Assembly (NCBI GenBank): GCA_030625885.1
Contig: DAOUPZ010000018.1
Coordinates: forward strand, 19,147-83,146
Source of the DNA: Clostridia bacterium
GTDB taxonomy: Bacteria > Bacillota > DAOUPZ01
DNA: 64,000 bases
Direction: 5' to 3'
Shown here: piece after piece, positions 26,520 through 57,374 of the stretch
Position numbering within the stretch: position 1 is the first letter of the stretch
Layout of the letters: every line of letters begins with the position of its first letter
Program-made: the position numbers and the translations under genes
The notes under the pieces: generated by a model
Seen by the model: only the letters and a program-made list of their open reading frames with translations
What the model was told of the DNA's origin: nothing
Databases searched by the model: none

Positions 26520-27098
26520 CTATAAGGTTTCTATAATATTTTTAGCAACATCTCTTATGCTCTTTCCATGATCCATACTCTGCTTTTGTATCTTTCGATG
26601 GGCTTCCATCTCTGAAAGTCCCAACTTTTTCATTAACAATCCTTTAGCCCTGTCAACCATTTTCCTAGTTTCTAGATCCTCTTTTAAATCTTCTACTTCT
26701 GCCTCTAATCTCTTAATCTGTTGTTTACTAGACAAAATAAGATCAATCGTCCGAATCAATACCGTCCGGTTAAACGGCTTATTAAGGCATACCACATCTA
26801 GATTGCCGCGAAAACTTTCTGCATACTCTGTTTGACTTTTATTCATAAGTAATATGACGGTACATAATTTATCATAAGCAAGCAGTTTAGCTACTTCTAA
26901 CCCAGTCGTATCAGGAAGTTCAAAATTAACAATTAGCAGATCTGGCCGTAACATCCGTACCTTTTGAATGGCTTGACTGCCGGAAGTGCAAACACTTAAT
27001 ACGTGAAAACCATTTTGGGCAAGGACTTGTTTCATCTGATTTGCAGCATCCATTTCATTAATCGCAATCATAACTTTCCGATTCATCCTTACCCTCAC
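26520..27098 (-). CDS. Response regulator with C-terminal ANTAR RNA-binding domain
   Basis: Receiver-like N-terminus (DLLIVNFELPDTTGLEVAKLL) and ANTAR (RAKGLLMKKLGLSEMEAHRKIQKQSMDHGKSIRDVAKNII); directly downstream of glnA. Confidence 0.93.
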   Translation of the reverse strand: MRVRMNRKVMIAINEMDAANQMKQVLAQNGFHVLSVCTSGSQAIQKVRMLRPDLLIVNFELPDTTGLEVAKLLAYDKLCTVILLMNKSQTEYAESFRGNLDVVCLNKPFNRTVLIRTIDLILSSKQQIKRLEAEVEDLKEDLETRKMVDRAKGLLMKKLGLSEMEAHRKIQKQSMDHGKSIRDVAKNIIETL

Positions 27099-27128
27099 TC
27101 CTATCTAAATACCTTCAATGACTTGTTT

Positions 27129-28460
27129 TTAATATTTTGCAAGGTACTGATTAATTTCCCATTCATAAACCTGTGTCCGATATTCATCCCACTCAATTAA
27201 TTTCGCTCCCGTATACCGTTCTAAAATATGACTACCCAGCGCATTCTTAACCAATTCATCTTTTTGCAATTCCTTGATCGCTTGGCAAAGGTTTTCCGGA
27301 AGACTCTCTATACCAGCTGCTTTTCGCATGTCTTCATCCATTTCAAAAATATTCTTTTCTACACTTGCCAATGGCTGAAGGTTATTTTTAATGCCATCCA
27401 GTCCTGCTGCCAGTGAAACCGCAAATGCCAAATAAGGATTGCAAGCAGGATCGGGGTTTCTCATCTCAACCCTCGTACTGGCACCACGTGCTGCCGGAAT
27501 ACGAATAAGAGGACTTCTATTTTTAGCAGACCACGCAATATATACCGGTGCTTCATAACCCGGTACAAGCCGCTTGTAAGAATTGACAACCGGGTTTGTA
27601 ATCGCTGTCATCCCTTTAATATGTTTCATAATGCCCGCAATATATTGATAGGCTGTTCCACTTAATCCCAGCTCATTATCAGGATCATAAAATGCATTTT
27701 TCCCATCCCTGCTAAGCGATTGATTGATATGCATCCCGGAACCACAAACACCGAAAATAGGCTTAGGCATAAAAGTAGCATGCAAACCATATTTTTGGGC
27801 AATGGTTTTTACAGCCAGTTTGAATGTCATGATGTTGTCTGCCGTTGTTAAAGCATCCCCATATTTAAAATCTATTTCGTGCTGTCCCGGTGCCACCTCA
27901 TGATGAGATGCTTCTATTTCAAATCCCATTGCTTCAAGCGTCAAACACATATCTCTTCGTGCATCTTCGCCAAGATCTACCGGTCCTAAATCAAAATATC
28001 CGGCATTGTCATGTGTAACGGTTGTCGGATATCCCTTCTCATCTTTATGGAACAAAAAGAATTCGCATTCCGGGCCCACATTAAATGTATATCCCATCTC
28101 CTCCGCTTCTTTAATGGTTTTTCTTAATACATAACGGGGATCTCCCTCAAACGGTGTTCCATCCGCATTATAAATATCGCATATGAGTCTCGCCACTCTT
28201 CCCGGGGCGGGCCGCCATGGATAAATGACAAACGTATCTGGATCTGGTCTGAGGTACATATCAGATTCTTCTATTCTGACAAACCCTTCTATTGATGACC
28301 CATCAAACATACATTCATTATCCAGTGCCTTCTCCAATTGACTGGCTGTAATGGATACGTTTTTTAGCATTCCAAAAATATCCGTAAATTGTAATCGGAT
28401 AAACCTGACATCATTCTCTTTTACCATCTTCTTAACATCTTCTGTTGTATACTTTGACAT
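27129..28460 (-). CDS. glnA: Glutamine synthetase type I
   Basis: [67 protein letters not shown]. Confidence 0.98.
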
Positions 28461-30465: not shown

Positions 30466-31182
30466 CTAAGGTTGAACTTCAATTTGCCCTTCAGACTCTT
30501 GCACTTCGGGCTGCATACTCACAAAGGGATTATCTCGCCCAAACTTCCAATTTTTTATATCATCCAAAAAAAGACGCCCCTCGGGTGTCGGCAAAGAATA
30601 AATATATAAAAGCAGTTCAACTTCAACCGTTCCTTTTGTCAATGATTGCACCCTTTCATCCGTTTCTGATTCCAATTCTTTTTCCATTCTATGAAACTTA
30701 AGATCTCCAATTGTTGTTACATTACTTTGATTTTCTAGATCATCAATCACCTCAACCACACGGCGATAATTTCCATCTAATTTTAAGTCAACCGGTAAAA
30801 CAAGAACCGTCTGCTGGTCAATAATATCTTGCGGCTCAAAAAAATTTAACAAGACTTCTTTCTGTGCTAACTTACGACTAAATTCAACTAAAAACAATCC
30901 ATCTTTCATATCCGTATTAAACTGACTGCGTGCCCTTTCTAATTCTTCCTGACATGTGATCAGTAATTCTTTTTCTTCTTTAATCATCATAGAAATATCT
31001 TTGCTTTGCGTTATTTCTTCTGATAGTTGCACAATTTGTTTCTTAACCTGCTGATTTTGTTTGAAATAAGGGATTGCCTTTTGAAAAACAAAAAGGGAAA
31101 ATAAAACAGCCAGAAAAAAAGACACCCCTATGATTCCATGCTTTTTATTTATTTTACCGCTTATTTTCTCCCACACCTTCAA
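30466..31182 (-). CDS. PilO-like T4P alignment protein (cluster 1)
   Basis: Single N-terminal TM then coiled coil, follows PilM/PilN-like genes. Confidence 0.7.
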   Translation of the reverse strand: MKVWEKISGKINKKHGIIGVSFFLAVLFSLFVFQKAIPYFKQNQQVKKQIVQLSEEITQSKDISMMIKEEKELLITCQEELERARSQFNTDMKDGLFLVEFSRKLAQKEVLLNFFEPQDIIDQQTVLVLPVDLKLDGNYRRVVEVIDDLENQSNVTTIGDLKFHRMEKELESETDERVQSLTKGTVEVELLLYIYSLPTPEGRLFLDDIKNWKFGRDNPFVSMQPEVQESEGQIEVQP

Positions 31183-31870
31183 TCCCTTCTTTCAAAACCG
31201 CTCTAATCATAAAATTAAACAGATCGGCCTCCTGTTCCCTATTGATATATTGCAAATTAACCTTTTCAAAAGAAGATTGGGTATTCAATTGATAAACAAA
31301 TCGACCAATATATTCAGCACTTGTACTCATACCACTAATCAATATCTGACCCGGACGCCGTAATACCTCTTCTTCTACATTTTCATCATTCTTTTCTACC
31401 ACATGGTTTTTTTCTTCCTGTCCATGCGTCAAATCAAACAGGCCCTGCACATCAAGTGTTTTTTCTTGAACTTCGTTGTCTTTTTCACTTTCATGATGAC
31501 TTTGTAATGAAATAAACCAAACATCATCTGATGGAACACAATCATCAATCACGGCCAGTACTTTTGGCCAACGCCAGCGACCTTCTGTGATAAACTGTAA
31601 TTTTTGTATTTCTAATTCCAGTTGCTCTCGCTGCAATTTTAATTCACTTAATTCTTCCTTTTCAATTTGAATGGCTTTATGCTCTGTTTTTAAATGAGTT
31701 AACTGAATCTGATCATTATCATGCTGTTCTTGTAAATAAATAAAAGAACTGATTCCAATTCCCAACAACATGCAGAACAGTAATGAAATTATAATCACAA
31801 ATTTTATTTTCTTTCTTCGCTTAATAATATTCTGTGGCAAAAAGTTGATGTCTTTTTTTTGGCGATCCAA
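31154..31870 (-). CDS. PilN-like T4P assembly protein (cluster 1)
   Basis: DINFLPQNIIKRRKKIKFVIIISLLFCM; PilN motif INxLP plus TM; between PilM and PilO. Confidence 0.78.
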   Translation of the reverse strand: MDRQKKDINFLPQNIIKRRKKIKFVIIISLLFCMLLGIGISSFIYLQEQHDNDQIQLTHLKTEHKAIQIEKEELSELKLQREQLELEIQKLQFITEGRWRWPKVLAVIDDCVPSDDVWFISLQSHHESEKDNEVQEKTLDVQGLFDLTHGQEEKNHVVEKNDENVEEEVLRRPGQILISGMSTSAEYIGRFVYQLNTQSSFEKVNLQYINREQEADLFNFMIRAVLKEGIEGVGENKR

Positions 31871-31887
31871 ATGTTAATCCCACCTTA

Positions 31888-32904
31888 CTATGCTTCCAAT
31901 GAATGACCTGGTAATCTATCAGAGTAATCGTTTCTCTGTACCTTGCGGGAAATTAAACACAAATTCTTCTCTCTTAGCATCAGCCCTATATTACTCGCAT
32001 AAACAGCAGCTTCATTAGCAATCGCCCTTCCCTTCCCTTTAAATTCCAGAGGGCCTAATACGGAAAGATCTGCAATTACGGGCACTGAAAATTCGCGTCC
32101 AAATATGTAATCAATGCCGGGCATTGACGCCATCTCTCCCACGATAATGATTTTATCAATTGTTTTCCCAAAATTTCGAGAAGAAAAATACTCTAAATAG
32201 CCTTGTACTTCTTTAGATAGCACTGTAAAATCACATGTTTCATTAATCATATCCACCTGACAAGGAACATCTGCATATAAGAACAACGTCTTTCCTTTAA
32301 ATATAGTAATCCGTGTCCCATCCTGATTGCTTTCCAAAACCAATGTATCCTGATATAAAAAATGGCTGAAGAGACGATGCATGATATTGGGCAAAACATC
32401 TATCGCCATGGGTTTAAGTCGAATTTCTTCCAAAAGTTCTATCATCTGTTCCAACAATTGATTTTTAACAGCTGCCAATAACAACAACCACTCTTCTTGT
32501 TCCTTTTCACTTCTTTTCTCCAATATATGATAATCATAGGTATATTCTTTCAAATCTACAGGCAAATAACGACTGACCTCCATTTTCATCATGCTGGCCA
32601 AATCTTTTTCATTCATAAAAGGCACGTTAACGTTACGTGTCAAAATACCACTTTGACCCATACCGACCACTACTTTTTTAGCTTTCATTTTATTCTTTTT
32701 TAAAAAGTCCTGTAAAACACGACCGTTCTTTTTTAATTGTTGCGGCTCCATTTTTTCTGCGAAAGAATACGGCAGTAACAAGGTACCATATGAATCTATT
32801 ACAAATTTCAAATCATGATGACGGGTATATCCTTGAACCATTCGTACACTCTGATCTCGAAAATCCATAAAAAGCGTGGGAAAAATATTCGCTTGTCGTT
32901 TCAT
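31888..32904 (-). CDS. PilM-like T4P assembly ATPase (cluster 1)
   Basis: MEVSRYLPVDLKEYTYDYHIL and IIIVGEMASMPGIDYIFGREFSVPV; FtsA/PilM-like. Confidence 0.75.
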   Translation of the reverse strand: MKRQANIFPTLFMDFRDQSVRMVQGYTRHHDLKFVIDSYGTLLLPYSFAEKMEPQQLKKNGRVLQDFLKKNKMKAKKVVVGMGQSGILTRNVNVPFMNEKDLASMMKMEVSRYLPVDLKEYTYDYHILEKRSEKEQEEWLLLLAAVKNQLLEQMIELLEEIRLKPMAIDVLPNIMHRLFSHFLYQDTLVLESNQDGTRITIFKGKTLFLYADVPCQVDMINETCDFTVLSKEVQGYLEYFSSRNFGKTIDKIIIVGEMASMPGIDYIFGREFSVPVIADLSVLGPLEFKGKGRAIANEAAVYASNIGLMLREKNLCLISRKVQRNDYSDRLPGHSLEA

Positions 32905-32982
32905 TTGACCACCCTATCCATCTTTTCTTCCGTAAATGTGTTTTTTCTCCAAAGTTCGTTCTTTTTCCTGCAAAAAAAAGAC

Positions 32983-34206
32983 TTATTTCCTTAAAACTGT
33001 AAAATCATAAAAATAATTAATGCCTTCCCAAACTTGCAAACCCGTATGCCTTTTCTCTGGATCTTTCGTATAGGATGGATCATGATCCAAAATAGGACTT
33101 TCCAAAATAGCCATCACCGGGTTGCCGCTGTTATCCTGATTGATACGAACCTTCTCATCCCATCCTTCCGGCTGTAAAAAGATATCGACTGCTCGCTCAT
33201 CCTGCCCCTCAATATTAACCGTTTGTACCGTAATGGTCAAAATGTCTTTATTTCCCCAAAATGAATAATTTTCCAGTTGAGATGGGATTTCAAAGGTATA
33301 AATAGCATCCTTCTCAACACCATCACTTCTAGGACAAATTGCAAAAGTCTCCCCCGGCATATATTTAAAAACATATCCAAAATCATTCTCATTATCATCT
33401 TGCTCTCTAGCAACATTTTCTGTATCTAAAAACACCCCGTAACCATTACTCACATGATTCTTTTTATCTAAAAGCTCTGCTATCACTTTTATTTCATAAT
33501 CTTGATATCCCAATATCGGCATAAAAAGCCGAAGATCGCCTTTGTCTTTGTTTTCCACATACGTACGGTTTCCATTGAATTTCCAATCTTGCTGCAAATT
33601 GTCTCCTGCCGCTGGGAAGATAATTTCCTCCTCCCAAAGCAAATTCCCCGTTTCAATCATTGGCGGTGTCACATTGACACTAGAACTTTCTCCCTTATAG
33701 GAATCCACACTGCCATCGGCATAATACCAAACCTTTACTTGATATTTATACAACGTATCCTGTATCGTCGCTTCAATATCAAAAGTAAGAAGATGAGGCT
33801 CATCCTGTGATACAGTCGGTTCTATTTCTCCAGACGGCTGCACTTCATAGGCAGCCTTAACCTGATGATCATCCTCTTCCAGCCCATATTGCAACCGAAT
33901 GCTTTTTTTCAAAAAAACCCACTTGGTATTCAAAAGGGGTAAAAATTCTGCGGTATCTGCATTTTGGGTGAGTGTCACCACGCCTTCTTCATCTGTTTCG
34001 CACAACCCGGCAATATAATTATGCCATTCTTTAATGATCAAATCTGCCCCGGATTCTGCCAGATAAAAAGCCTGGATTTCCTCTCCATAGTCATTCACCA
34101 GAGTTGTTTGTGACGTTGAAGTATAAATAACCATCGTTCCAATCACCATCAAAACAGACATCACAATGAGAACCAGTGCCAGAGCTACCCCTTTTTCATT
34201 ATTCAA
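32983..34206 (-). CDS. PilX-like minor pilus protein (cluster 1)
   Basis: MNNEKGVALALVLIVMSVLMVIGTMVIYTSTSQTTLVNDYGEEIQAFYLAESGADL; PilX-type N-terminus. Confidence 0.75.
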   Translation of the reverse strand: MNNEKGVALALVLIVMSVLMVIGTMVIYTSTSQTTLVNDYGEEIQAFYLAESGADLIIKEWHNYIAGLCETDEEGVVTLTQNADTAEFLPLLNTKWVFLKKSIRLQYGLEEDDHQVKAAYEVQPSGEIEPTVSQDEPHLLTFDIEATIQDTLYKYQVKVWYYADGSVDSYKGESSSVNVTPPMIETGNLLWEEEIIFPAAGDNLQQDWKFNGNRTYVENKDKGDLRLFMPILGYQDYEIKVIAELLDKKNHVSNGYGVFLDTENVAREQDDNENDFGYVFKYMPGETFAICPRSDGVEKDAIYTFEIPSQLENYSFWGNKDILTITVQTVNIEGQDERAVDIFLQPEGWDEKVRINQDNSGNPVMAILESPILDHDPSYTKDPEKRHTGLQVWEGINYFYDFTVLRK

Positions 34207-34229
34207 TTGATTAAACAGAGTACCCCCTC

Positions 34230-34745
34230 CTAACCTGGCTGGTAATGCCGCGCTAGCCTGATCTGCGTTATCAAAGTAAATGGACGTTCCTGTGAGTGAT
34301 TGAGATTAAGAACTTCAATATCAATCTTTAGAAGATGATCACTCTGAGTAAAATTCAGGGTTTGAATATCCGCCACAAAAGAATCACCCTGATGGTTTTT
34401 TAACACTCCGTTCTGATTGACCTCGTCCCAGTCTAAATAATATAAAGCCGCTCGGGGTCCCGTCATTTTGGCAAAATCAATTAGAACCTGACCGTCTTCC
34501 CCTTTGACTTCTGTTCCGGTCACTTCGATCGTTTCATAACGCTGCAAAAGTTCCGTCATCCGCTGCATAGCCATCCTGCATCTCAATTCAGCTATCATTT
34601 CATCATTATGCGCATTGAGAAAACGAAAATTAAAATTTAAAAACCCATAAACCGTTGAAATAAAGATACCCACCAAAGCAACGGCTAACATCAATTCCAC
34701 TAACGTAAAACCTTTACTATCCCGCCATATCCTTTTCATAGGCAC
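34230..34745 (-). CDS. Type IV prepilin-like protein (PilW-like, cluster 1)
   Basis: Prepilin signal RDSKGFTLVELMLAVALVGIFISTVYGF. Confidence 0.85.
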   Translation of the reverse strand: MPMKRIWRDSKGFTLVELMLAVALVGIFISTVYGFLNFNFRFLNAHNDEMIAELRCRMAMQRMTELLQRYETIEVTGTEVKGEDGQVLIDFAKMTGPRAALYYLDWDEVNQNGVLKNHQGDSFVADIQTLNFTQSDHLLKIDIEVLNLNHSQERPFTLITQIRLARHYQPG

Positions 34746-34779
34746 CTCACTTCACATAGTCACCTCAATAAATCAGCCG

Positions 34780-35160
34780 CTATGGCAGCCACACAACCAC
34801 TTCAAACCGGTTTGGATCCGCTTCATTGTACGGCATATCCTCCTCAGGAACAACAATCACTCGAAGCAGCGTCCCCCCATTAAAAGCTTCTTCACGACAC
34901 GTTAATGCATAGGGCTTTTGCATCATCCATTCGGTCCATGGGGCAACCTTTCCTGCTTTGATATGCTCCGTCGCCGTGCGAGCAACTTCCATCATACGAA
35001 TCTCTACAACCTGATCCGCAAAAATATGACTGCCTGTTTTAGTCAGCGTCGTGATAGAAACCAGTACAATGCCAAATAGACCAATTGCCAGCATGATCTC
35101 CACTAAAGTAAGTCCTTTCTGGTTACCTGCTTTTCGCTCCACTTTATACCTCCCGATCAT
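34780..35160 (-). CDS. Type IV prepilin-like protein (PilV-like, cluster 1)
   Basis: Prepilin signal NQKGLTLVEIMLAIGLFGIVLVSI. Confidence 0.85.
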   Translation of the reverse strand: MIGRYKVERKAGNQKGLTLVEIMLAIGLFGIVLVSITTLTKTGSHIFADQVVEIRMMEVARTATEHIKAGKVAPWTEWMMQKPYALTCREEAFNGGTLLRVIVVPEEDMPYNEADPNRFEVVVWLP

Positions 35161-36374
35161 TACTGTTTAAGATGGCGTACCATATCCATCATCGGTAGCA
35201 TTACCGAAATAATCACCACACTGATCACCAATCCAATCACAATCAACAGTGCAGGCTCTACTAACGCCAGGATTTTATCAAATCCAGCATTGGCTTCTCG
35301 CTCATAATAATCAGCCATTTCTGCCAGCAGCATTTCCAGTTCCCCGGTTTCTTCACCAATGGTCAGCATTTGCAAAAGCATGTTGTCAAAGTAACCTGTT
35401 TTTTGGATATGGTCTGATAGAGATCCCCCCCGAAGCAATCCGTTAATGCCTTCTTCAATCGCTTTTTCGGCCACTGCATTATTCATATTATTTTTGATAT
35501 AACGCAAACTTTCCACCAATGGCAGTCCACTTTTCATCAGCAAATAAAGATCATGGGCAAAATGCATCATCGTTACATCTTTTAAAGTTTTCCCTATAAC
35601 AGGCACACGAGACAACCCTTGATCCTTAACCCACCGACCTTTTACTGTCTTAAAATAACGCGAAAGAAACAGTAATATCCCACTGAATATAAATAAGATA
35701 ACAAAAAAATACTGACTCCCAAATTCCGCAATACCCATAACAACCCGTGTAATAAACGGCAATTCACCCCCACTGAGCGTAATCATATTGATCAGCTGGG
35801 GCAGTAAAAAATTAAAGAAGAAAGTCAGTATCCCAATCGCCATAACAACCATAATCGTGGGGTAAATAGAAGCGGATTTTATTTTTTGCCCAATCCGATG
35901 TTCCCGTTCATAATAATCCGCCATATTACGAAACATTTCTTCTATCCGTCCACTCGCTTCCCCTGTTGCTACCATACTGGACAAAAGCGGCGGCATCAAT
36001 GATCCGGTTTCATTCATGGCTTCTGAAATAGACTTTCCGGTCTGAACGGCTTGATAAATGCGGCCAACTTCCAAATTCGTGAGTTTGTCACGGGTCTGAT
36101 CCTGCATCATATCCAGCGCCTTAATTAAGTTAACCCCAGACTTCGTGACCACTGCCATCTGACGGCAAAAGTGGCTCACTGCACGACTCTTAAGCTTCTT
36201 TTCTAATGTGAAAGATTGTTTGGAAAAAAATTTACGTCGTCCTTTTTCTATAGCCACGGGTAATAAGTTTTCACTTTTAAGATACTGATACACCACCGTT
36301 TCGTTTTCACCCTCATAAGTTCCAGTGACCCTCTTTCCGCGACTGTCTATAGCTCGATATCTATAATGACCCAT
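35160..36374 (-). CDS. pilC: T4P/T2SS inner membrane platform protein PilC (cluster 1)
   Basis: Two GspF domains: AVVTKSGVNLIKALDMM...GEASGRIEEMFRNMADYYE; LLMKSGLPLVESLRYI...GEETGELEMLLAEMADYYE. Confidence 0.93.
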   Translation of the reverse strand: MGHYRYRAIDSRGKRVTGTYEGENETVVYQYLKSENLLPVAIEKGRRKFFSKQSFTLEKKLKSRAVSHFCRQMAVVTKSGVNLIKALDMMQDQTRDKLTNLEVGRIYQAVQTGKSISEAMNETGSLMPPLLSSMVATGEASGRIEEMFRNMADYYEREHRIGQKIKSASIYPTIMVVMAIGILTFFFNFLLPQLINMITLSGGELPFITRVVMGIAEFGSQYFFVILFIFSGILLFLSRYFKTVKGRWVKDQGLSRVPVIGKTLKDVTMMHFAHDLYLLMKSGLPLVESLRYIKNNMNNAVAEKAIEEGINGLLRGGSLSDHIQKTGYFDNMLLQMLTIGEETGELEMLLAEMADYYEREANAGFDKILALVEPALLIVIGLVISVVIISVMLPMMDMVRHLKQ

Positions 36375-36395
36375 CTACTTTCCTCCTGCAACCTG

Positions 36396-38081
36396 CTATG
36401 TCGTATAAGTCACTCGAAGCATTTCTTCTACGGTGGTGATCCCCTGCAACACTTTGTGACGTGCATCTTCCTGCAGCGTCATCATCCCCTGCTCTAGCAC
36501 CTGTGCTCGGAGCTGATCAAGCGACGCTCTATCATCAATGAGCTGACGCTGCTCCGAACTCACTTCCATAATCTCGTAAATGCCAATACGACCTTTATAT
36601 CCTGTCTGATTACAATATTCACAACCTGACCCTTTTCTTAACATAAGCGTTTCATCCAGCGGCATTTTTAAAATTCTTTTTTCCCGTTCATCCGCCTCAT
36701 AAGACTGACCACATTTAGGACATATCTTACGTACCAATCGCTGTCCTACAATCCCAACCAGCGAAGAAGAAATCATATACGGTTCAATTCCCATATCCAT
36801 AATACGCGTCACAGCTCCCGGTGCATCATTGGTATGCAAAGTGCTCAAAACCAGATGACCCGTTAAGGCCGCCCGCATCGAAATCTCAATGGTTTCGCTG
36901 TCTCTGATTTCACCCACCATGATCACATCGGGATCCTGCCGTAAAATAGAACGTAAACCCGTCGAAAACAAGAGACCCGCTTTCGCATTCACTGCCGTCT
37001 GATTAATCCCTTTCATATCTAGTTCAATGGGATCTTCCAGGGTAATAATATTCTTTTGATGGTCATTAATCTTGGACAGCATCGCATAGAGCGTGGTTGT
37101 TTTACCACTGCCTGTCGGCCCTGTCACGAGAATAATGCCATACGGTCTGGCTAATAACCGCTCAAAAACCTCTAACTGCATGGGGTTTAACCCTAATTTC
37201 TCCATACCAATCAAAAAACTGCCTCGATCCAGAATTCGCATCACAATTTTTTCCCCATGATTGGTCGGCATGGTGGAGATCCGCAAATCAATCTCCCGAT
37301 TGTCAACTTCAATCATCATCCGTCCATCCTGCGGCAAACGCTTCTCAGAAATATTTAAGTTCGCCATGACTTTAATCCGACTGACAATCGCCCCATGCGC
37401 CTTAAGCCCGGTCACCAGCGTTTTCTGCAAAATCCCATCTACACGAACCCGTACCCGCATTTCCGCTTCATACGGTTCAATGTGAATATCACTGGCTCCG
37501 CTTCGAACGGCATTCTCAATGGTCGATTGAACAAAACGCACAATCGGTGCTGCATTAATATCTAAATTAACATTGTCTATATTGCCCAAAAGTTCCGATT
37601 GAGATTGCATATAATCACCAATCGCTTGCGCTGCTTTCGCCTGAGAAAAGACAATATTAATCTGCTTCTCAATATCATCCGCATAAGACAAAAACGGCTG
37701 CACGGGCATCTTAACCATTAAGCCCACATCTTGAATAGCAATTGGATCCAGCGGATCCCACATTGCAAGGCAAAGGCGGCCCTGGTTAACCTCAAACGGG
37801 ATAACCTTATGCCGCCTCGCTAAGTTTTCCGGGATCAGCCGGGCTACTTTTGGATCTACTTTAAGATATTTGAGGTTAATACTTTTAATCCCCAGCTGAG
37901 TTTCTAATACTTTGGTCAACTGCTCTCGACTGATATACCCGTCTTCAATCAGAATATTTCCCAGCCGGCGACCCGATTGACGTTGTTTTTGCAGCGCCTC
38001 ATTCAATTGCCCCACTGTGATTAAACCATTCTGAACCAACATATCCCCCAAGCGAATTTTTGTTTGAATCACCCGTTCCAC
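36396..38081 (-). CDS. pilB: T4P assembly ATPase PilB (cluster 1)
   Basis: ILVTGPTGSGKTTTLYAML, LRQDPDVIMVGEIRD, TGHLVLSTLHTNDAPGAVTR, four-Cys CPKCGQ...CEYCNQTG. Confidence 0.96.
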   Translation of the reverse strand: MERVIQTKIRLGDMLVQNGLITVGQLNEALQKQRQSGRRLGNILIEDGYISREQLTKVLETQLGIKSINLKYLKVDPKVARLIPENLARRHKVIPFEVNQGRLCLAMWDPLDPIAIQDVGLMVKMPVQPFLSYADDIEKQINIVFSQAKAAQAIGDYMQSQSELLGNIDNVNLDINAAPIVRFVQSTIENAVRSGASDIHIEPYEAEMRVRVRVDGILQKTLVTGLKAHGAIVSRIKVMANLNISEKRLPQDGRMMIEVDNREIDLRISTMPTNHGEKIVMRILDRGSFLIGMEKLGLNPMQLEVFERLLARPYGIILVTGPTGSGKTTTLYAMLSKINDHQKNIITLEDPIELDMKGINQTAVNAKAGLLFSTGLRSILRQDPDVIMVGEIRDSETIEISMRAALTGHLVLSTLHTNDAPGAVTRIMDMGIEPYMISSSLVGIVGQRLVRKICPKCGQSYEADEREKRILKMPLDETLMLRKGSGCEYCNQTGYKGRIGIYEIMEVSSEQRQLIDDRASLDQLRAQVLEQGMMTLQEDARHKVLQGITTVEEMLRVTYTT

Positions 38082-38102
38082 CCACTTTTTATATCATTGG
38101 AA

Positions 38103-38642
38103 TTAGTCTACTGTTTTTATGTATTTTGAATCACATATGTCACCTTTAGCATCATAATAGAAGATATCACATTTCAGTTGACCACTATCTGCATAGGCCG
38201 CAAATGCCACTGCTCCTCTCATATTTTCAGCAATAGCGTGCCAATCTTCATATGCTGCTCCCCATGCATCCGTAGCATGAACAACCTCGTCATCTCCATC
38301 ATCATATATAACCGCAGAAGCATTTTCTGCATCAATATCTGTATGATCTGCCACACTGGTTACAACTGTTTCCTGATTGAAAGGATTCGTTATATTATCA
38401 CCCAATTTATTTGCTAATGCTGTTTCAAAGTCATCTACCTCTGAAGACGTATACTTACTAATTAACCCCGTTGCCGTCGCTTCTACGACCCGCATATTGG
38501 TATCAATCCCACTCTCCCGTGCCGTATCCTTCATAAAACCCATCTTTGGAATCAACACCACTGCCAATATCCCAATAATCGCAATAACCATCATCAATTC
38601 TACCAGCGTAAACCCTTTTTCGTGTCTCAATGCCTTAAACAT
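38103..38642 (-). CDS. Probable major type IV pilin (cluster 1)
   Basis: MFKALRHEKGFTLVELMMVIAIIGILAVVLIPKM; RBS gaggaggtagagata atg. Confidence 0.9.
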   Translation of the reverse strand: MFKALRHEKGFTLVELMMVIAIIGILAVVLIPKMGFMKDTARESGIDTNMRVVEATATGLISKYTSSEVDDFETALANKLGDNITNPFNQETVVTSVADHTDIDAENASAVIYDDGDDEVVHATDAWGAAYEDWHAIAENMRGAVAFAAYADSGQLKCDIFYYDAKGDICDSKYIKTVD

Positions 38643-38821
38643 TATCTCTACCTCCTCATTTGCATTCAATTATTTTTGTTTTTCCAGATTAGCAACTTTG
38701 CCCAATACCGCCCCCTTTCTCATCTATAAAATATTTATTTTAGGATTTTTTTCTGCAATATTCTATTGTTTTATTTAATATTTACCCACTTAACATCATT
38801 TTAAGCACATTGCGATCTCAT

Positions 38822-38869: not shown

Positions 38870-39299
38870 TTTGTCGCGCCTCCATCACAAAACACCTTAT
38901 TACAAAATATGTATACCCTTCCATTATGTATAATAACAGCAAATTTATTTCAATAATCAAACATTTTTATTAAAAAAATATGAAATTATATGTCATGCAA
39001 TAAAGAACTTACATTGTAGGTTTGCAGAGCCATTCTAAATGTAAAAACAAAACAGTCTGCTGCTTATCCTCCTATATTTACGTGATAAGCAGCAATAATA
39101 TGAAAATCTTTTATAATAAAAAAAATTAAGCAGGTAGCAACCAGCAGATCTTTTCCCTACCTGCTACAGCGAGCAACACAAGCGTGCTACCTGCTTTTAT
39201 TATGAAGAACTTAGAACCCAGAACTAATAATTTCCCACCAAAGTTCTCTATACTTTTTTACCCATTTGTGTTATATTTTTAATAAGAGGGGTAAATATT

Positions 39300-39376
39300 G
39301 TATTAGAAACGAAGATTCATACCTTAGTAACTGGACACCTGAGGGTATGAGGAGTGCGTGGTGTAACCGACTATTC
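39300..39376 (+). ncRNA. Cyclic di-GMP-II riboswitch aptamer (candidate)
   Basis: GAAACGAAGATTCATACCTTAGTAACTGGACACCTGAGGGTATGAGGAGTGCGTGGTGTAACCGAC matches remembered class II core elements GAAAC, AA(C/U)UGG(A/G)CAC and GU..UG(U/C)AACCGAC; TCATACCTTA/TGAGGGTATGA helix and ACACC/GGTGT pseudoknot can form. Confidence 0.8.
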
Positions 39377-39656
39377 ATTTTTGATATGGACAGGCGGCTT
39401 TTTTAATTTTGACAAATTTATGTTATCGAACGTACTACTAAAGTCCTAGATGCATAGAATATATAAGGGACAATTGACAATTGATAATTCATAATTCATA
39501 ATTCATAATTAAAAAGATTAAAAGACGTTGAACGAGGAACGAATAACGAGGAACGAAAAAGGAGAAAAGAAAAAGATATTAGCTTAAGGCTAGAGATCTT
39601 AAAACATTTAGATTTGAAGTTTAAAAAATTATATTGTCGTGGTTGACGGAAACGCG

Positions 39657-48490: not shown

Positions 48491-49113
48491 GGTTGAGATC
48501 CCTCCGGTGCTACATAACAGGAAATTTCAAAATCGGTGAAATTGCTGCGTATTGTACGAACCATTTCCAAAGGTTCTTCACCCTCAATTTCCGGCTGCTG
48601 AATACCAATGATTTCTGACTGTTCTTCTCCAATCACTTCTATATAATCATAGACTACATTTTCAAAATCAGAGGATGTGTTTAATGCTATGTAAAATTCG
48701 TATACATCTAAACTCTTTGGCGCTGTTCCCATCAATGTCAGCATATGATCTTCAAACAATTCCATATCATATAATTCAACCCCCTCCGGGATTAGAGGTA
48801 ATAATGATTCAATTTCTCCGGCAAAGTGAAATTTTCTATCGTGCAGTTGTGCTAGAATAATCTGAGCCTTCAGCATCTCTTCATTACTTCGTTTCAGGGA
48901 ACGAATAACCTCTTTGGTTTCCTGAAGTAAAAGAAACTCTTTTTCGATACCCGCTATTTCCTGCCGCATATGACCCACATGCAAATTCATCCAATAATAC
49001 CCATAGCCCAACCCGCATGAAAAGCTCACCAGTAACAGCAAAACCACCCAATGACGCATCCGCCATTTAGGTTTCGGCCTAAACTCGGGGGGTAACAGGT
49101 TGATCTCTACCAT
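48487..49113 (-). CDS. PilN-like T4P protein (cluster 2)
   Basis: MVEINLLPPEFRPKPKWRMRHWVVLLLLVSF. Confidence 0.8.
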   Translation of the reverse strand: MVEINLLPPEFRPKPKWRMRHWVVLLLLVSFSCGLGYGYYWMNLHVGHMRQEIAGIEKEFLLLQETKEVIRSLKRSNEEMLKAQIILAQLHDRKFHFAGEIESLLPLIPEGVELYDMELFEDHMLTLMGTAPKSLDVYEFYIALNTSSDFENVVYDYIEVIGEEQSEIIGIQQPEIEGEEPLEMVRTIRSNFTDFEISCYVAPEGSQP

Positions 49114-50138
49114 CAATACTTCACCTGCCTTAACGCACATCCCAGAGCCGCAGCCATCATCGATGGAGACTTGTCCAGTATATCTTGATGGGATACCAAC
49201 GCCTTTTCCGGCAGAATAACATCCAGCGGATTAAGAATGGATACCGGAATCCCCAGCAAATCCTGTAAGGCTTCCGCAAAGCCTTTTAGAAGGGCACCGC
49301 CTCCCGTAAGGAAACAATTCTGTATTTTTTGATCGCGATACTGCAAACGAAAGTATTCAAAGGAACGATTGATTTTCCTGAGTAAATCTTCCCACATGAC
49401 ATCCATATCAGGATGATGGATGTCCATTCCCTGCTCAATTTTCATTTCTTCTGCTTCTTCCCAGGTCATAGTCAGTATTTCTTGAATCGTACGCGTAAAA
49501 TACCGCCCACCCAAAGGAATTGAGCGAGTCAGATACGGTATGTCGTTACGGGTAATAACCACATTCGTACTTCCCCCGCCCATATCAATCAGCGCGATAT
49601 TATCATCAATTGGATGAATCACTTGGAGCGTACGTAATAATGCCAGTCCTTCCACCTCAACAGCCAGCGGTTTTACGCCGCTCTCATTCAAAAGCAGCGC
49701 CCGATTTTGAGCGATGTCTTTATTAACGGCAACTAATAAGACCTCTACTCGATCCTCTTTTTCACTAATTATCCCCCAGTCCATCATCGCCTCATTTAAA
49801 GGAATCGGGATATGCTTTTCCGCCTCCCAGTATACGGCCTCCTGCATATCCTGTGTGTCCATAGAGGGCATTTCCAAAATCCGAACGATACAGTAATCGG
49901 AAGAAACCAGGGAAATGCCCCCTCCCACTTTGAGGCCGATCGCCTTAATGGATTCTGCGATTAAGCTGCAAATCACACCCAGCTCAATCATGCCGTCTTT
50001 AGTAACACTTTCTTGTGGGGTAGGAATAATCGTACCGTTAGCCTTATATAGTTTTTTTTCTTTTTTGACTTGAACGATTTTTATATAGCTGGTGCCAATA
50101 TCGATTCCCAGTACCCTATTGCTCCCAAATAGCCCCAC
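49113..50138 (-). CDS. pilM: PilM-like T4P assembly ATPase (cluster 2)
   Basis: VLGIDIGTSYIKIVQVKKEKKLYKANG, AVYWEAEKHIPIPLNEAMMDWGII, ALIDMGGGSTNVVI. Confidence 0.93.
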   Translation of the reverse strand: MGLFGSNRVLGIDIGTSYIKIVQVKKEKKLYKANGTIIPTPQESVTKDGMIELGVICSLIAESIKAIGLKVGGGISLVSSDYCIVRILEMPSMDTQDMQEAVYWEAEKHIPIPLNEAMMDWGIISEKEDRVEVLLVAVNKDIAQNRALLLNESGVKPLAVEVEGLALLRTLQVIHPIDDNIALIDMGGGSTNVVITRNDIPYLTRSIPLGGRYFTRTIQEILTMTWEEAEEMKIEQGMDIHHPDMDVMWEDLLRKINRSFEYFRLQYRDQKIQNCFLTGGGALLKGFAEALQDLLGIPVSILNPLDVILPEKALVSHQDILDKSPSMMAAALGCALRQVKY

Positions 50139-50164
50139 TCGTGCTCCCCCTATATGCCAACTTA

Positions 50165-50632
50165 TTATTCTAAATTATAACCGAGGTTTTCCCATTCCAA
50201 TATGGTTAATTTATCATCAGCTGTTTTATAACCTACCCTAACATTTATCTGATACTTTTCATTGTCATCTTCTAGCGCATAACCCATAATATCATAATAA
50301 TACATTCTCACTTCACCCGTATCAACATCTATATCTCTATGGGATTCATCTTCATTAATTACCCATCTACAAAAACCATTCTTTTCATTATCTACGTCTA
50401 AAACGGTACCTTTATGGTCGTTAATAATGTAAATAGCCCGTTCAACTGCTGCATTGGCCGAATAACAATCCTGCCGCTTCTGAGCAATGTGGTCTGCATT
50501 CTTTAAATCAACATAGGTATACGTCATAAACCCGCCGGCAAGGGTAAAAACCACTACCATCATCAAAATAACAAGATACAGCGTCATACCCTGCTGATCG
50601 CGATATACCATGTCTTTATTTAGATGGACCAT
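50165..50632 (-). CDS. PilX-like minor pilus protein (cluster 2)
   Basis: MVHLNKDMVYRDQQGMTLYLVILMMVVVFTLAGGFMTYTYVDLKNADHIAQKRQDCYSANAAVERA; start overlaps preceding gene by 17 nt. Confidence 0.65.
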   Translation of the reverse strand: MVHLNKDMVYRDQQGMTLYLVILMMVVVFTLAGGFMTYTYVDLKNADHIAQKRQDCYSANAAVERAIYIINDHKGTVLDVDNEKNGFCRWVINEDESHRDIDVDTGEVRMYYYDIMGYALEDDNEKYQINVRVGYKTADDKLTILEWENLGYNLE

Positions 50633-51707
50633 TATATATTTCTCCTTCAAGTGTTTCAATTGTATATGTAAATGTGTTCTTAATAATCGTACCATTACCA
50701 TTTACTTGCCTTTTACCCGAATATGTAAAGCGCTTAACACCTGTCATATATGGCTTTCCCTCATTACAATTCTGTCTGTTATCCCAATAATAAATGGTTT
50801 CCCCCACAAGCCAATAATGCATCTCTTTATTGCCAGTATGAATATGAAGTCGATCTCTATCTTCATGAATATGCTGTCCTGAAAAAATATCTGCTTCAAA
50901 ATCTTCCGCCGATCCAAACGGAAGCAGGTCTTCGTCAGAATCTTTTGGAGGACCATGGTATACCTCTCCCCCCACCATTACAACTGTATATTCAAAATTA
51001 TCAGGGTTTCCATATCCATTTCCATGCTTACTGCCTGTGGAATAAAATTCAGCAACATCTGTTAGAATAACCTGTGTATCGCCGTCATCATCATTACCAT
51101 TACCATTACCGTTTTCCCAACGATAAATTTTACCGCCTTCTAACCAATATTTGATAGTCGTACTTCCTCCGCCTCTGATATGAACGACCACTCCTGCAGA
51201 ATCATCGACATTCTGTCCGGTTTCAATCTCTAGATCTAACTGTTTCAATGAATCCGGTTTCTCACCTGGCAGCGGCGGCTCTTCTCCGCCTCCTGAACCA
51301 TTATTCAAAATATCTACTGCAGTACCCATACTGTATACCTTTGTACGTAAAAACTCAACATTTGTGTCCCGATCTATAATACTGACCTCAGTAAATGCGG
51401 GATTGGATGTATCAATCTCCACAATTGTTTCCCCATCAGAATACTTGTTCTTTATTTCCATAATTTCTTCTACACTGGATGCTTGTCGTATTTCTTCACT
51501 AATTCTCTGCAGATCATTACGCGCTTTCTGTCGGTCTTCTACCCTAGTCATCTGGGAACCCGCAATGTCCTTTACACTCTGACTCACAAAACCATAACTA
51601 GCCGCAAAAATCATTCCTATAATACCCACGACTACCATTAACTCAATCCCTGTAAAGCCTTTCTGCTTGTTGCTTCTTTTCATCATACTCACCTCCTTGC
51701 TTTCCAT
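50616..51707 (-). CDS. Prepilin-like protein (PilW-like) with internal repeat (cluster 2)
   Basis: NKQKGFTGIELMVVVGIIGMIFAASYGF prepilin signal; two similar ~90-aa C-terminal segments. Confidence 0.85.
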   Translation of the reverse strand: MESKEVSMMKRSNKQKGFTGIELMVVVGIIGMIFAASYGFVSQSVKDIAGSQMTRVEDRQKARNDLQRISEEIRQASSVEEIMEIKNKYSDGETIVEIDTSNPAFTEVSIIDRDTNVEFLRTKVYSMGTAVDILNNGSGGGEEPPLPGEKPDSLKQLDLEIETGQNVDDSAGVVVHIRGGGSTTIKYWLEGGKIYRWENGNGNGNDDDGDTQVILTDVAEFYSTGSKHGNGYGNPDNFEYTVVMVGGEVYHGPPKDSDEDLLPFGSAEDFEADIFSGQHIHEDRDRLHIHTGNKEMHYWLVGETIYYWDNRQNCNEGKPYMTGVKRFTYSGKRQVNGNGTIIKNTFTYTIETLEGEIYNGPSK

Positions 51708-52093
51708 GTCACCAACTCAATTTTATTTATCTCATCATCTTTCCGCCAAACGTTTACCTTTATTTCTCTTAAAGCCGCTCCCTCACCATTATTCATTATT
51801 TCAGATACAAAATATTTCCCATTATATAAATTGTTTAATGTTTCATCGCCAAATTCATTAACGCTTATCCCCGTTTCACCTGTTTCCGTTAACTCACCAT
51901 AATCTTTACTCCGCAATTCCTCCATTTTGGCCTGAGCCAGATATGAGGCCTGACTTTTTTGCGACGCCCTTATATTCGCTTTAATGCTCACCAGCCACAT
52001 TTGCGATACCCCTAAAACCACCACCGACATAATGGTCACGCTGATGACCAATTCGATCAATGTAAAACCTCTCTCACTCTGCCTGATCTTCAT
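51689..52093 (-). CDS. Prepilin-like protein (PilV-like, cluster 2)
   Basis: QSERGFTLIELVISVTIMSVVVLGVSQMW. Confidence 0.88.
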   Translation of the reverse strand: MKIRQSERGFTLIELVISVTIMSVVVLGVSQMWLVSIKANIRASQKSQASYLAQAKMEELRSKDYGELTETGETGISVNEFGDETLNNLYNGKYFVSEIMNNGEGAALREIKVNVWRKDDEINKIELVTWKARR

Positions 52094-52103
52094 AGAAATC
52101 GCC

Positions 52104-52847
52104 TCACATCCACAATCCCAGATACCAATTTAAAATCGGCTCTTTTGCCAAGATCACAATCAGCGCGCCTAAAACCATAAATGGACCAAAAGGGATATAA
52201 TCTTTACGCGATTTTATTTTGGTTACTATCAAAATAAGTCCCACCAATGCGCCAAAAATGAACGCAAAAAAGAAACTAAGCAAAACGTCCTGCCAACCTA
52301 AGAATACACCAAGCATCGCTGCCAATTTCACATCTCCGCCGCCCATGCCGCCGCGGCTGACCAACGCAATCACCAGAAACAGCCCCCCGCCAGCCACAAA
52401 CCCCAGCAGCGAGTTTTGCAAGGTTTGCATTCCCCCTACTATATTATATGCTAATCCTGTGATTATGCCAAGATATGTTATTTTATTTAATATTAAATGA
52501 TGATCCAAATCAATAAAAATAACTATAATTAGTAAGCTGGTAAACCATAGACTATTGATCAAATGCCACTGGCAGCCATACCGGATATACATCAAGGTAA
52601 ATAAAATGCCCGTCAATCCTTCCACAAAAGAATATCGCCAAGAAACTTTCGCCCCACAATATCGGCATTTCCCTCGCAAAAACAGATAACTAAAAACAGG
52701 TACCAAATCCAACGGACCTAACGTATGATTACAAGATGTACAATGAGACGCCGGAAAAGCAATAGACGCCTCCCGCGGCAAACGATAAATGCAGACATTT
52801 AAAAAACTGCCGATGATTAGGCCAAACATGAAAATGAATATGCCCAT
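52104..52847 (-). CDS. pilD: Prepilin peptidase/methylase PilD
   Basis: GSFLNVCIYRLPRE, CTSCNHTLGPLDLVPVFSYLFLRGKCRYCGAKVSWRYSFVE, FIDLDHHLI, GGGDVKLAAMLG. Confidence 0.96.
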   Translation of the reverse strand: MGIFIFMFGLIIGSFLNVCIYRLPREASIAFPASHCTSCNHTLGPLDLVPVFSYLFLRGKCRYCGAKVSWRYSFVEGLTGILFTLMYIRYGCQWHLINSLWFTSLLIIVIFIDLDHHLILNKITYLGIITGLAYNIVGGMQTLQNSLLGFVAGGGLFLVIALVSRGGMGGGDVKLAAMLGVFLGWQDVLLSFFFAFIFGALVGLILIVTKIKSRKDYIPFGPFMVLGALIVILAKEPILNWYLGLWM

Positions 52848-53078
52848 CGCAAATTCTCCTTTTTATAAGTTCTTGGTTCCCAGTTCTCGGGGAAAAAATA
52901 AAATCGTTAAAGCTCTTTTCCCTTAAGCCTTGAGTCTTAAGCCAATTTCTTTTTCTTCTCCCTATCTTTAATCGTTCCTCTTTTAGCGAACGTAGAGAGC
53001 GGTCTTCCCTCTATCTTTTCCTACCTACTACCTGCTACAGCGACCGAAGGGAGCGTCCTACTTACTGCAGCGAAGCTG

Positions 53079-54287
53079 CTAAACCATATTAATCATCTCA
53101 AACATCGGTAACATAACGGCGGAAACAATAAAACCTACAATGCCCCCCATGACAAGAATAAGTGCCGGCTCTAAAAAAGAAGCAAAACGATCTACCGCGT
53201 GATCGACTTCTTTTTCATAAAAATCAGCTGCTTTATCCAGGAGTTGATCAATCCGTCCCGTCTGTTCCCCTACTGCCATCATTTGTATGAGCATAGGCGG
53301 AAATAAATTCTGCTGCTGCAAAACCGCTGCCAAACTATCCCCTTCCTGGATCTGTTCCCTGGCATCCAATAAGTTCTCTCTTAATACCTCATTTCCTATA
53401 ACAGGTGCCACAATTTCTAAAGCCCCCAGAATAGGCATCCCATTACTCAAAAGTGTTCCTAAAGTACGGGCAAAACGCGCGGTCAAAACAGCAAGCACCA
53501 AACTCTTAATAACAGGAGTCTTCAAAGACAATCTCGCCCATAATACTTGACTGACCGATGATTGACTAAAGCGGTAACAAATAAAAATAAGCAATGCCGC
53601 GACGACAAAAACAACGAATCCATGCTCGCGCAGAATTTGACTGACGGCCAACAATGCCCTGGTACTAGGCGGTAATTCGATATTCACAGAAGCAAATATG
53701 GATACAAAGTTCGGTAGGACCACCACAAGCATAAAAAGGACCATCCCCGCTGCCGCTAAAACAAGTATAAAAGGATATACCATGGCAGATTTCACTTTTT
53801 CCCGCAGGTGATGTTCTTTCTCAAAGTGAAGGGCTAAACGGTTCAATGTCTGATCCAATATCCCCCCGGTTTCCCCTGCTTCCACCATATTGTTAAAGAT
53901 ATCAGGAAATATTTTCGACTGCTTCCTAACCGCCTGATGAAGCGTTTCCCCTTCCTCTACATCTTCCTTAACTTGCTCCAAGACACTCGCAAAACTTTTA
54001 TTGCTTGTTTGCTGCTGCAAGGTTGCCAAACAATCAATCAGCGGCAACCCACTTTCAAAAAGAACGGAAAATTGCCGGCAAAAGATGGCCAACTCCCGTA
54101 CTTTTACCGCACGAAACAAGTGTATTTGATCTTTCCAAGAAACAACAATCTCTTTTTCCTTTAAATAAGTGATATAAAGGCCTTTTTCCTGAAGCGCCTG
54201 AGCTGCCAAAGATTTGGATTTGGCAGTGATTGTTCCGTTTTTTTCCTGTCTGTCAGGCGTTATTCCCCTATATTCATACCCCGGCAA
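53079..54287 (-). CDS. pilC: T4P platform protein PilC (cluster 2)
   Basis: VLFESGLPLIDCLATLQQQ; VEAGETGGILDQTLNRLA; GEQTGRIDQLLDKAADFYEKEVD. Confidence 0.94.
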   Translation of the reverse strand: MPGYEYRGITPDRQEKNGTITAKSKSLAAQALQEKGLYITYLKEKEIVVSWKDQIHLFRAVKVRELAIFCRQFSVLFESGLPLIDCLATLQQQTSNKSFASVLEQVKEDVEEGETLHQAVRKQSKIFPDIFNNMVEAGETGGILDQTLNRLALHFEKEHHLREKVKSAMVYPFILVLAAAGMVLFMLVVVLPNFVSIFASVNIELPPSTRALLAVSQILREHGFVVFVVAALLIFICYRFSQSSVSQVLWARLSLKTPVIKSLVLAVLTARFARTLGTLLSNGMPILGALEIVAPVIGNEVLRENLLDAREQIQEGDSLAAVLQQQNLFPPMLIQMMAVGEQTGRIDQLLDKAADFYEKEVDHAVDRFASFLEPALILVMGGIVGFIVSAVMLPMFEMINMV

Positions 54288-55682: not shown

Positions 55683-57374
55683 TTACTCCACCGCTGCAAT
55701 CTTTAACAGTTCCCGCAAAGTGGTTTCCCCCCTGAGCGTCTTCTCCAATCCATCAAGCCAAAGTGTACGCATCCCATCTGCCACAACAGCAGCTTGAATC
55801 TGATCTGCTGACTGACCTTCTAAAATCATTTCCCGATAAGATTGCCGCATTTCCAGTACTTCATGCACGGGTATCCGCCCTAAATAACCAGTATCATTAC
55901 ATAAGCTGCATCCTTTACCTCGATAGAGCATCTCTGTTTCCCCTTTATCTCCCATCAACTTCCGTTCCGCTTCACTAGGTACATATGATTCCTTGCAATA
56001 AGGGCAAATCCGTCGAACCAAACGTTGTGAGACAACACCTACAACCCCTGAAGTCACTAAAAAGTTATCAATTCCCATATCTATTAATCGGGTAATGGTT
56101 CCCAACGCATCATTCGTATGTAAAGTAGAAAAAACCAAATGCCCAGTCAAAGCCGCTCGAATCGCAATCTGAGCGGTTTCTAGGTCTCTAATCTCCCCTA
56201 CCATGATAATATTAGGATCTTGACGCAAAATCGCGCGTAATCCCATAGCAAAGGTCATCCCTGTTTTATAATTAACTTGAACCTGGTTAATGCCATCAAA
56301 ACGATATTCTACTGGATTTTCAACTGTCACAATATTCTTTTCCTGCGCGTCAAGGTTTTGTAAAATAGAGTAGAGTGTTGTTGTCTTCCCGCATCCAGTA
56401 GGACCGGTTACTAAAACCATCCCATAAGGCTTGATGATCATATGCTTAAAAAGTTCTAACGTGTCAGGCAAAAAACCAAGACCTTCCATATTCACCAACA
56501 TATTTTTTTTATCAAGAACTCGCAAAACAATTTTTTCCCCAAAAATGGTCGGTAAAACAGAAACCCGTAGATCAATCTCCCGTTCTTCATAAGGGATCGT
56601 AAACCGACCATCCTGAGGAAGCCGTTTTTCTGAAATATCTAGATCCGCCATAATCTTAATACGAGAAATTAGTCCCCCCTGAATGTTTTTAGAAGGTGTC
56701 ATCACTTCTTGCAATACCCCGTCGATCCGATAGCGAATACGCACCCGATTCTCCATGGGCTCGATATGAATATCACTGACACGATTTTTAAGCGCCTGTT
56801 CGATGATACTGTTAACCAAACGAATAATAGGTGCATCTTCTACTTCAATATCATCGGCCAGGGCTGCTGCCATCTCCATTTGCCCACGAACTTCCTGCTG
56901 TCCCTTTTCCATATCTGCTACAATACCCTGCAATTTATCGGCTACACCATAGTAGCGGCGAATAGCCAATTCAATATCTTCTTCTGTTGCGAGCACAGGT
57001 TCTACTTCCATTCCCGTCACCAGTTCTACATCATCAATAGCCAGTACATTCAACGGATCGGCCATCGCTAATTTAACCTTATCCGCATCTCTGGCAACAA
57101 TAAGTGCAACATGACGCTCGGCTAAATAACGGGGAATCGTTTGTACAACCTGACTATCCAGTTTAGTCACTTTTAAATCTATATATTCTATGTTCAATTG
57201 TCTTTCCAATGTTCTTAAAAAATCTTCTTCTTTCACATAGCCCATACTGACAAGTACTTGCCCCAAGCGTTCTTTAGTCACTTTTTGCAAGCGCAACGCC
57301 TCTTGTAACTGATTTTCGGTAATAAATCCTTCCTCTATAAATAAATCGCCTAAACGGGGGATTTTCCCTCTCAT
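55683..57374 (-). CDS. pilB: T4P assembly ATPase PilB (cluster 2)
   Basis: VLVTGPTGCGKTTTLYSIL, ILRQDPNIIMVGEIRDLETAQIAIRAALTGHLVFSTLHTNDA, CPYC...CSLCNDTG. Confidence 0.96.
   Translation of the reverse strand: MRGKIPRLGDLFIEEGFITENQLQEALRLQKVTKERLGQVLVSMGYVKEEDFLRTLERQLNIEYIDLKVTKLDSQVVQTIPRYLAERHVALIVARDADKVKLAMADPLNVLAIDDVELVTGMEVEPVLATEEDIELAIRRYYGVADKLQGIVADMEKGQQEVRGQMEMAAALADDIEVEDAPIIRLVNSIIEQALKNRVSDIHIEPMENRVRIRYRIDGVLQEVMTPSKNIQGGLISRIKIMADLDISEKRLPQDGRFTIPYEEREIDLRVSVLPTIFGEKIVLRVLDKKNMLVNMEGLGFLPDTLELFKHMIIKPYGMVLVTGPTGCGKTTTLYSILQNLDAQEKNIVTVENPVEYRFDGINQVQVNYKTGMTFAMGLRAILRQDPNIIMVGEIRDLETAQIAIRAALTGHLVFSTLHTNDALGTITRLIDMGIDNFLVTSGVVGVVSQRLVRRICPYCKESYVPSEAERKLMGDKGETEMLYRGKGCSLCNDTGYLGRIPVHEVLEMRQSYREMILEGQSADQIQAAVVADGMRTLWLDGLEKTLRGETTLRELLKIAAVE

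What the first reader, a model, noticed from the sequence alone, without database searches (positions are those of the whole stretch)
39300..39404. c-di-GMP-II riboswitch-like leader on the strand of a stand-alone type IV pilin
The + strand sequence tattaGAAACGAAGATTCATACCTTAGTAACTGGACACCTGAGGGTATGAGGAGTGCGTGGTGTAACCGACtatt lines up with the class II c-di-GMP aptamer core as I recall it from the Clostridium acetobutylicum structure (GGAAAC...AAAUUGGGCACUUGA...GUAGUGCAACCGACC). A long helix (TCATACCTTA / TGAGGGTATGA) and the pseudoknot (ACACC / GGTGT) both form here. Directly 3' is AACCG...CGGCTTTTTT, a possible terminator stem (one bulge) that would reuse the conserved AACCGAC. Ligand binding would then block termination (an ON switch), matching the known logic of c-di-GMP control of clostridial pilins. 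The next + gene is the pilin at 39834. The gap of ~430 nt is long and holds a GGGGACA hairpin and heptad repeats, so the riboswitch and gene may have been pushed apart.
Basis: partly seen in the sequence, partly recalled or inferred. Interest (0 to 1): 0.82.

Follow-up and report, generated by a model that had tools for sequence, protein, structure and literature searches.

The report
c-di-GMP-II riboswitch before pilin gene
A known kind of RNA sensor for the bacterial signal c-di-GMP sits upstream of a type IV pilin gene and most likely switches that gene on when the signal is high, as already shown in Clostridioides difficile, so this is a good but ordinary new example with a somewhat worn-looking sequence.

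Summary
Rfam's c-di-GMP-II model (RF01786) hits 39296-39381 on the + strand: 55.3 bits against a cut-off of 53.5, E 1.7e-9, and the only Rfam hit over cut-off in 64 kb. It is the only class II aptamer in a 3.1 Mb genome that also has 12 class I aptamers and about 31 GGDEF domains. The next + gene is a type IV pilin (39834-40262), 452 nt downstream, lying between two pilus operons on the other strand whose PilB ATPases both carry c-di-GMP-binding MshEN motifs. In 81 of 113 class II loci of the phylum, a terminator's 5' arm starts inside the aptamer (8 in shuffles), and the window has that layout. The long gap is explained: it holds two repeats scattered through the genome, and functional C. difficile class II switches also lie about 580 nt from their genes. 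Caveats: this terminator is the second weakest of the 81, P1 is weak, and one conserved ligand-contact position reads C instead of A (2 of 114 loci). A detuned or decayed switch is therefore possible. Class II control of a pilin is known from C. difficile pilA1, so this is a new member of a known kind.

The parts
39269..39277 (+). Candidate extended -10 promoter element (TG-T-TATATT); start of RNA would be about 39284, just before the aptamer
   Evidence: Read from the sequence; not listed by the two-hexamer scan, weak -35; inference
39296..39381 (+). c-di-GMP-II riboswitch aptamer
   Evidence: RF01786, 55.3 bits, E 1.7e-9, model 1-84 of 84; only copy in the genome
39317..39350 (+). Central hairpin (39317-39324 with 39343-39350), with tandem G.A kink-turn elements GA 39314-39315 and GA 39352-39353 at its base
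   Evidence: 8 of 8 model pairs formed; kink-turn read from the sequence
39335..39364 (+). Pseudoknot ACACC 39335-39339 with GGUGU 39360-39364
   Evidence: 5 of 5 pairs
39357..39357 (+). C at the position of the conserved contact A61; 39356 (U60) also differs; A39365, A39366, C39367, C39368, G39369, A39370 conserved
   Evidence: Rfam alignment; contact list PMC7288161; C in 2 and G in 6 of 114 loci
39367..39404 (+). Intrinsic terminator: imperfect stem 39367-39397 plus T6 at 39399-39404; 5' arm is the aptamer's CCGAC and P1 3' strand
   Evidence: -6.3 to -7.4 kcal/mol; same layout as 80 other loci, second weakest
39350..39382 (+). Competing hairpin that pairs the pseudoknot strand with the P1 3' strand; possible ligand-free fold
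   Evidence: Unconstrained folds; inference
39481..39511 (+). Heptad repeat (ATTCATA units), a genome-wide repeat
   Evidence: 91 matches in the genome with up to 1 mismatch, 0 in the reversed control
39657..39711 (.). REP-like hairpin CAAAATTGGGGACA...TGTCCCCAATTTTG
   Evidence: 64 copies of the core in the genome, 0 in the control; fold -32.6 kcal/mol
39821..39830 (+). Ribosome binding site AGGAGGAGGA of the pilin
   Evidence: Read from the sequence
39834..40262 (+). Type IV pilin, 142 aa, the proposed regulated gene
   Evidence: PF07963 N_methyl 38.5 bits; TIGR02532 over cut-off, PilA and GspG models below their cut-offs; pilins of known structure
40289..40310 (+). Terminator after the pilin, making it a single-gene unit
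   Evidence: Terminator scan
36396..38081 (-). PilB assembly ATPase of the divergent pilus operon, with c-di-GMP-binding MshEN domain
   Evidence: PF00437 and PF05157; NF053729 c-di-GMP motif 73.8 bits against cut-off 38
55683..57374 (-). Second PilB with the same c-di-GMP motif, first gene of the second pilus operon
   Evidence: NF053729 71.6 bits

Best explanation
A class II c-di-GMP riboswitch that acts as a transcriptional ON switch for the single-gene pilin unit at 39834-40262. RNA starting near 39284 makes the aptamer first. At low c-di-GMP, the CCGACUAUUCAU strand (39367-39378) is free to pair with 39386-39397 and form a terminator ending in U6, so the pilin is not transcribed. When c-di-GMP binds, the AACCGA contacts and P1 hold that strand and polymerase reads through to the pilin. 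High c-di-GMP would then act twice, by making pilin through the RNA and by acting on assembly through the MshEN domains of the two PilB ATPases. Shown here: the aptamer by covariance model, the terminator layout, the pilin, the MshEN motifs. Inferred: the start site, ligand binding, the switching, and co-transcription across 452 nt.
For: RF01786 above cut-off, full length. Only class II aptamer in the genome, yet it lies co-directional upstream of a pilin inside a 27 kb pilus region. The genome has about 31 GGDEF domains and 12 class I riboswitches. Terminator arm inside the aptamer in 81 of 113 phylum loci against 8 shuffled; the window's own terminator is reached by 9 of 200 shuffles. In 13 of 113 other class II loci a pilus gene lies within 2 kb downstream, usually PilB first. 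No other + strand terminator was found before the pilin. C. difficile class II switches are ON switches, including Cdi-2-4 of pilA1 (PMC6200980; PMC6366702).
Against: Score is only 1.8 bits above cut-off. P1 has 5 of 11 model pairs, and its duplex energy ranks 93 of 113. Terminator ranks 80 of 81. Contact A61 reads C. The spacer holds a large hairpin and a promoter-like TTGACA-17-CATAAT at 39474 that could drive the pilin on its own. No expression data and no close relative to show conservation.
Confidence: 0.7

Rival explanations
1. A decaying or uncoupled class II riboswitch: the aptamer is homologous, but a weak P1, weak terminator, changed contact base and inserted repeats mean it no longer controls the pilin, which has its own promoter in the spacer.
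For: Near-threshold score; P1 and terminator near the weak end of 113 loci; A61C; repeats in the spacer; consensus promoter at 39474. In C. difficile 5 of 16 predicted c-di-GMP riboswitches showed no function, although all four class II ones worked (PMC6200980).
Against: Pseudoknot, central helix, kink-turn and the AACCGA contact strand are all intact. Functional C. difficile class II switches lie up to about 580 nt from their genes (Table 1 coordinates in PMC6200980). Repeats in the spacer do not stop transcription by themselves. The 39474 promoter match sits inside a low-complexity repeat, and the overall number of matches is near chance (10 against 7.6).
Confidence: 0.2
2. A working class II aptamer with altered affinity or ligand preference because contact A61 is C (for instance a higher c-di-GMP threshold, or another cyclic dinucleotide).
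For: C at this position in only 2 of 114 loci. Position 61 is listed among ligand contacts in 3Q3Z (PMC7288161).
Against: A69, A70 and G73 keep the canonical letters. The named variant family RF03170 (c-di-GMP-II-GCG) does not match this genome. The pilin context is a classic c-di-GMP target. No recurrent clade of such variants is shown; the one other locus lies in a genome with four aptamers.
Confidence: 0.08
3. Chance resemblance, not a riboswitch.
For: Plain folding shows no excess stability.
Against: E 1.7e-9 in 64 kb, and full-length match with intact pseudoknot and core. No other class II hit in 3.1 Mb.
Confidence: 0.02

Closest known systems
Cdi-2-4 (Cdi2_4) riboswitch of pilA1 (CD3513), Clostridioides difficile 630
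   Same: Class II c-di-GMP aptamer upstream of a type IV major pilin; ON switch by read-through of a terminator (PMC6366702, PMC6200980, PMC3649979)
   Different: C. difficile pilA1 heads a pilus operon and lies about 160 nt from the riboswitch start; here the pilin is a single gene 538 nt from the riboswitch start, with the pilus operons on the other strand
c-di-GMP-II family, Rfam RF01786 (C. acetobutylicum aptamer, PDB 3Q3Z)
   Same: Full-length covariance match, pseudoknot, central helix, kink-turn, AACCGA strand
   Different: Weak P1, C for A at contact 61, G for U at 60, A-U for G-C in one pseudoknot pair (a change also seen in other loci here)
c-di-GMP-II loci upstream of PilB in the same phylum (for example L018, L136, L151, L194)
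   Same: Class II aptamer in front of pilus genes, usually with an overlapping terminator
   Different: Those usually control the PilB operon at 25-90 nt; here the target is a lone pilin at 452 nt

Membership tests
c-di-GMP-II riboswitch (RF01786) | Covariance-model score at or above the curated cut-off | tested here: met
   55.3 against 53.5 bits, E 1.7e-9
c-di-GMP-II riboswitch (RF01786) | Central helix and pseudoknot | tested here: met
   8/8 and 5/5 pairs
c-di-GMP-II riboswitch (RF01786) | P1 closing helix | tested here: inconclusive
   5 of 11 model pairs, inner three formed; rank 93 of 113 by duplex energy, within the family's range
c-di-GMP-II riboswitch (RF01786) | Conserved ligand-contact bases (A13, A14, U37, G39, U60, A61, C68, A69, A70, C71, C72, G73, A74 in 3Q3Z, PMC7288161) | tested here: inconclusive
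   10 of 13 kept by alignment. A61 is C, U60 is G, C68 is U with its pseudoknot partner changed to A. Mapping of 3Q3Z numbers rests on my memory of that sequence plus the Rfam alignment
c-di-GMP-II riboswitch (RF01786) | Binds c-di-GMP | not testable with these tools
   Needs in-line probing or calorimetry
c-di-GMP-II-GCG variant (RF03170) | Score with its own model | tested here: not met
   No match at E 0.001 in the genome; RF01786 is the best of its clan here
Class II transcriptional ON switch | Terminator whose 5' arm is the aptamer's 3' end | tested here: met
   39367-39404; 81 of 113 loci share the layout, 8 shuffled; energy is weak
Class II transcriptional ON switch | Ligand raises read-through into the downstream gene | not testable with these tools
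   No expression data
Type IV pilin (39834-40262) | Prepilin N-terminal motif GFTLVE and pilin family match | tested here: met
   PF07963 and TIGR02532 over cut-off

The most novel reading that the evidence does not exclude
The A61-to-C change with canonical A69, A70 and G73 marks a rare class II subtype whose dinucleotide affinity or preference is shifted, so that pilin synthesis and the MshEN-PilB motors respond at different c-di-GMP levels.
Probability: 0.08. Interest if true: 0.5.

Novelty: new member of a known kind. Interest (0 to 1): 0.3.

Why it matters
If right, it extends riboswitch control of type IV pilin beyond C. difficile to a little-sampled Bacillota-like lineage. Here pilin supply (RNA sensor) and pilus assembly (MshEN-PilB) both read c-di-GMP within one 27 kb region. 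The lone pilin, the repeat-filled leader and the rare contact base make it a handy natural variant for testing how much a class II switch can lose and still work.

Tried and rejected
Chance match: rejected by covariance score and absence of other class II hits in 3.1 Mb. RF03170 variant (the local letters GCG at 39356-39358 suggested it): rejected, no match. Unconstrained RNA folding as a test: uninformative, cannot model the pseudoknot. Spacer hairpin as a second regulatory RNA: rejected, it is a repeat with 64 genome copies; the miRNA family hits to it are below cut-off. A conserved pilin-riboswitch pair in near relatives: could not be tested, no other genome of the same genus or family came up, and the genome-contig scan returned only remote pilins. 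Bordeleau 2015 full text not held.

Full report
OBSERVATION. A scan of the whole 64 kb window against all Rfam families returned a single hit over any curated cut-off: c-di-GMP-II (RF01786) at 39296-39381 on the + strand, full model length, 55.3 bits (cut-off 53.5), E 1.7e-9. The kink-turn letters at the base of the central helix (GA 39314-39315, GA 39352-39353) are there by reading. It is the only class II aptamer in the 3.1 Mb genome, which also has 12 class I aptamers and about 31 GGDEF domains.

CONTEXT. The next gene on the strand is a 142-residue type IV pilin, 39834-40262 (PF07963; TIGR02532), with a strong ribosome site and its own terminator at 40289-40310. It stands alone on the + strand between two pilus operons on the - strand (30466-38669 and 47741-57374). 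Each of these operons has a PilB whose N-terminus matches the c-di-GMP-binding MshEN-related motif over cut-off. So c-di-GMP probably acts on both pilin supply and pilus assembly (inference).

MECHANISM. I collected 113 other class II loci from the same phylum. In 81 of 113 loci with enough sequence (the window counted) a hairpin followed by a T run has its 5' arm starting within the aptamer's 3' end, against 8 in dinucleotide shuffles. This is the ON-switch layout. The window shares it: CCGACUAUUCAU (39367-39378) pairs with 39386-39397, then C and T6. The stem has two mismatches and about -6.3 to -7.4 kcal/mol, ranking 80 of 81; 9 of 200 shuffles of the same stretch reach it. A competing hairpin (39350-39382) that ties the pseudoknot strand to the P1 strand is as stable (-7.7) and may be part of the ligand-free state (inference). 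An extended -10 (TG-T-TATATT, 39269-39277) would start the RNA about 12 nt before the aptamer (read from sequence, inference).

THE LONG SPACER. Aptamer end to pilin start is 452 nt; among 100 loci the median distance to the first long ORF is about 84 nt and 12 are at 400 or more. Two pieces of the spacer are genome-wide repeats: the GGGGACA hairpin (64 copies, 0 in control) and the ATTCATA heptads (91 matches, 0 in control). The distance is not disqualifying: coordinates in Table 1 of PMC6200980 place two functional C. difficile class II switches about 580 nt from their genes. The upstream side also carries a repeat (39148-39195, about 25 related copies).

PILUS LINK IN RELATIVES. In 13 of 113 other class II loci a pilus gene lies within 2 kb downstream, most often PilB as the first gene at 25-90 nt, and once a pilin directly (L011). 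C. difficile Cdi-2-4 upstream of pilA1 is the tested precedent (PMC6366702; PMC3649979).

WEAKNESSES. The score is barely over cut-off. P1 forms 5 of 11 model pairs and ranks 93 of 113 by duplex energy. The position corresponding to contact A61 (contact list in PMC7288161) is C, seen in 2 of 114 loci, with G in 6. The named variant family RF03170 does not match. These features leave room for a detuned or decaying switch; I give decay about 0.2. Without a close relative, conservation could not be tested; the best named relatives of the neighbouring PilB are Dethiobacter, Pelotomaculum and Desulfotomaculum at about 68%.

VERDICT. The finding is correct, and both the family and the logic are well supported by sequence. 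It is a new member of a known kind rather than something new.

Noticed in passing
39030-39225, - strand: Two strong hairpins (z -2.6 and -3.5; one ends in AATTTTTTTT) lie upstream of the divergent pilus operon; part of the region (39148-39195) is a repeat with about 25 genome copies. Could be terminators or an attenuator-like leader.
   Followed up: partly
2736, 18843, 39667, 42732, 46289: GGGGACA...TGTCCCC REP-like hairpins, five in the window and 64 in the genome; no associated transposase was looked for.
   Followed up: partly
L031 (same genome, contig C30:42065-42149): A class I c-di-GMP riboswitch precedes a prepilin-peptidase-like and a TadE-like gene, so the genome may use class I for Tad-type pili and class II for type IV pilin (gene names by eye).
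   Followed up: partly
L033, L036, L037 (same genome): Class I c-di-GMP riboswitches precede chemotaxis-receptor-like genes (by eye).
   Followed up: no
L203, L205, L207, L017: Class II loci whose AACCG reads GACCG, probably the GAG-type variant described in Rfam; several in one genome.
   Followed up: no
26520-28460, - strand: Response regulator next to glutamine synthetase; it looks like an ANTAR-type RNA-binding regulator (by eye, not tested).
   Followed up: no
39740-39865, + strand: 41-codon ORF in the leader overlapping the pilin start; no NCBIfam match.
   Followed up: partly
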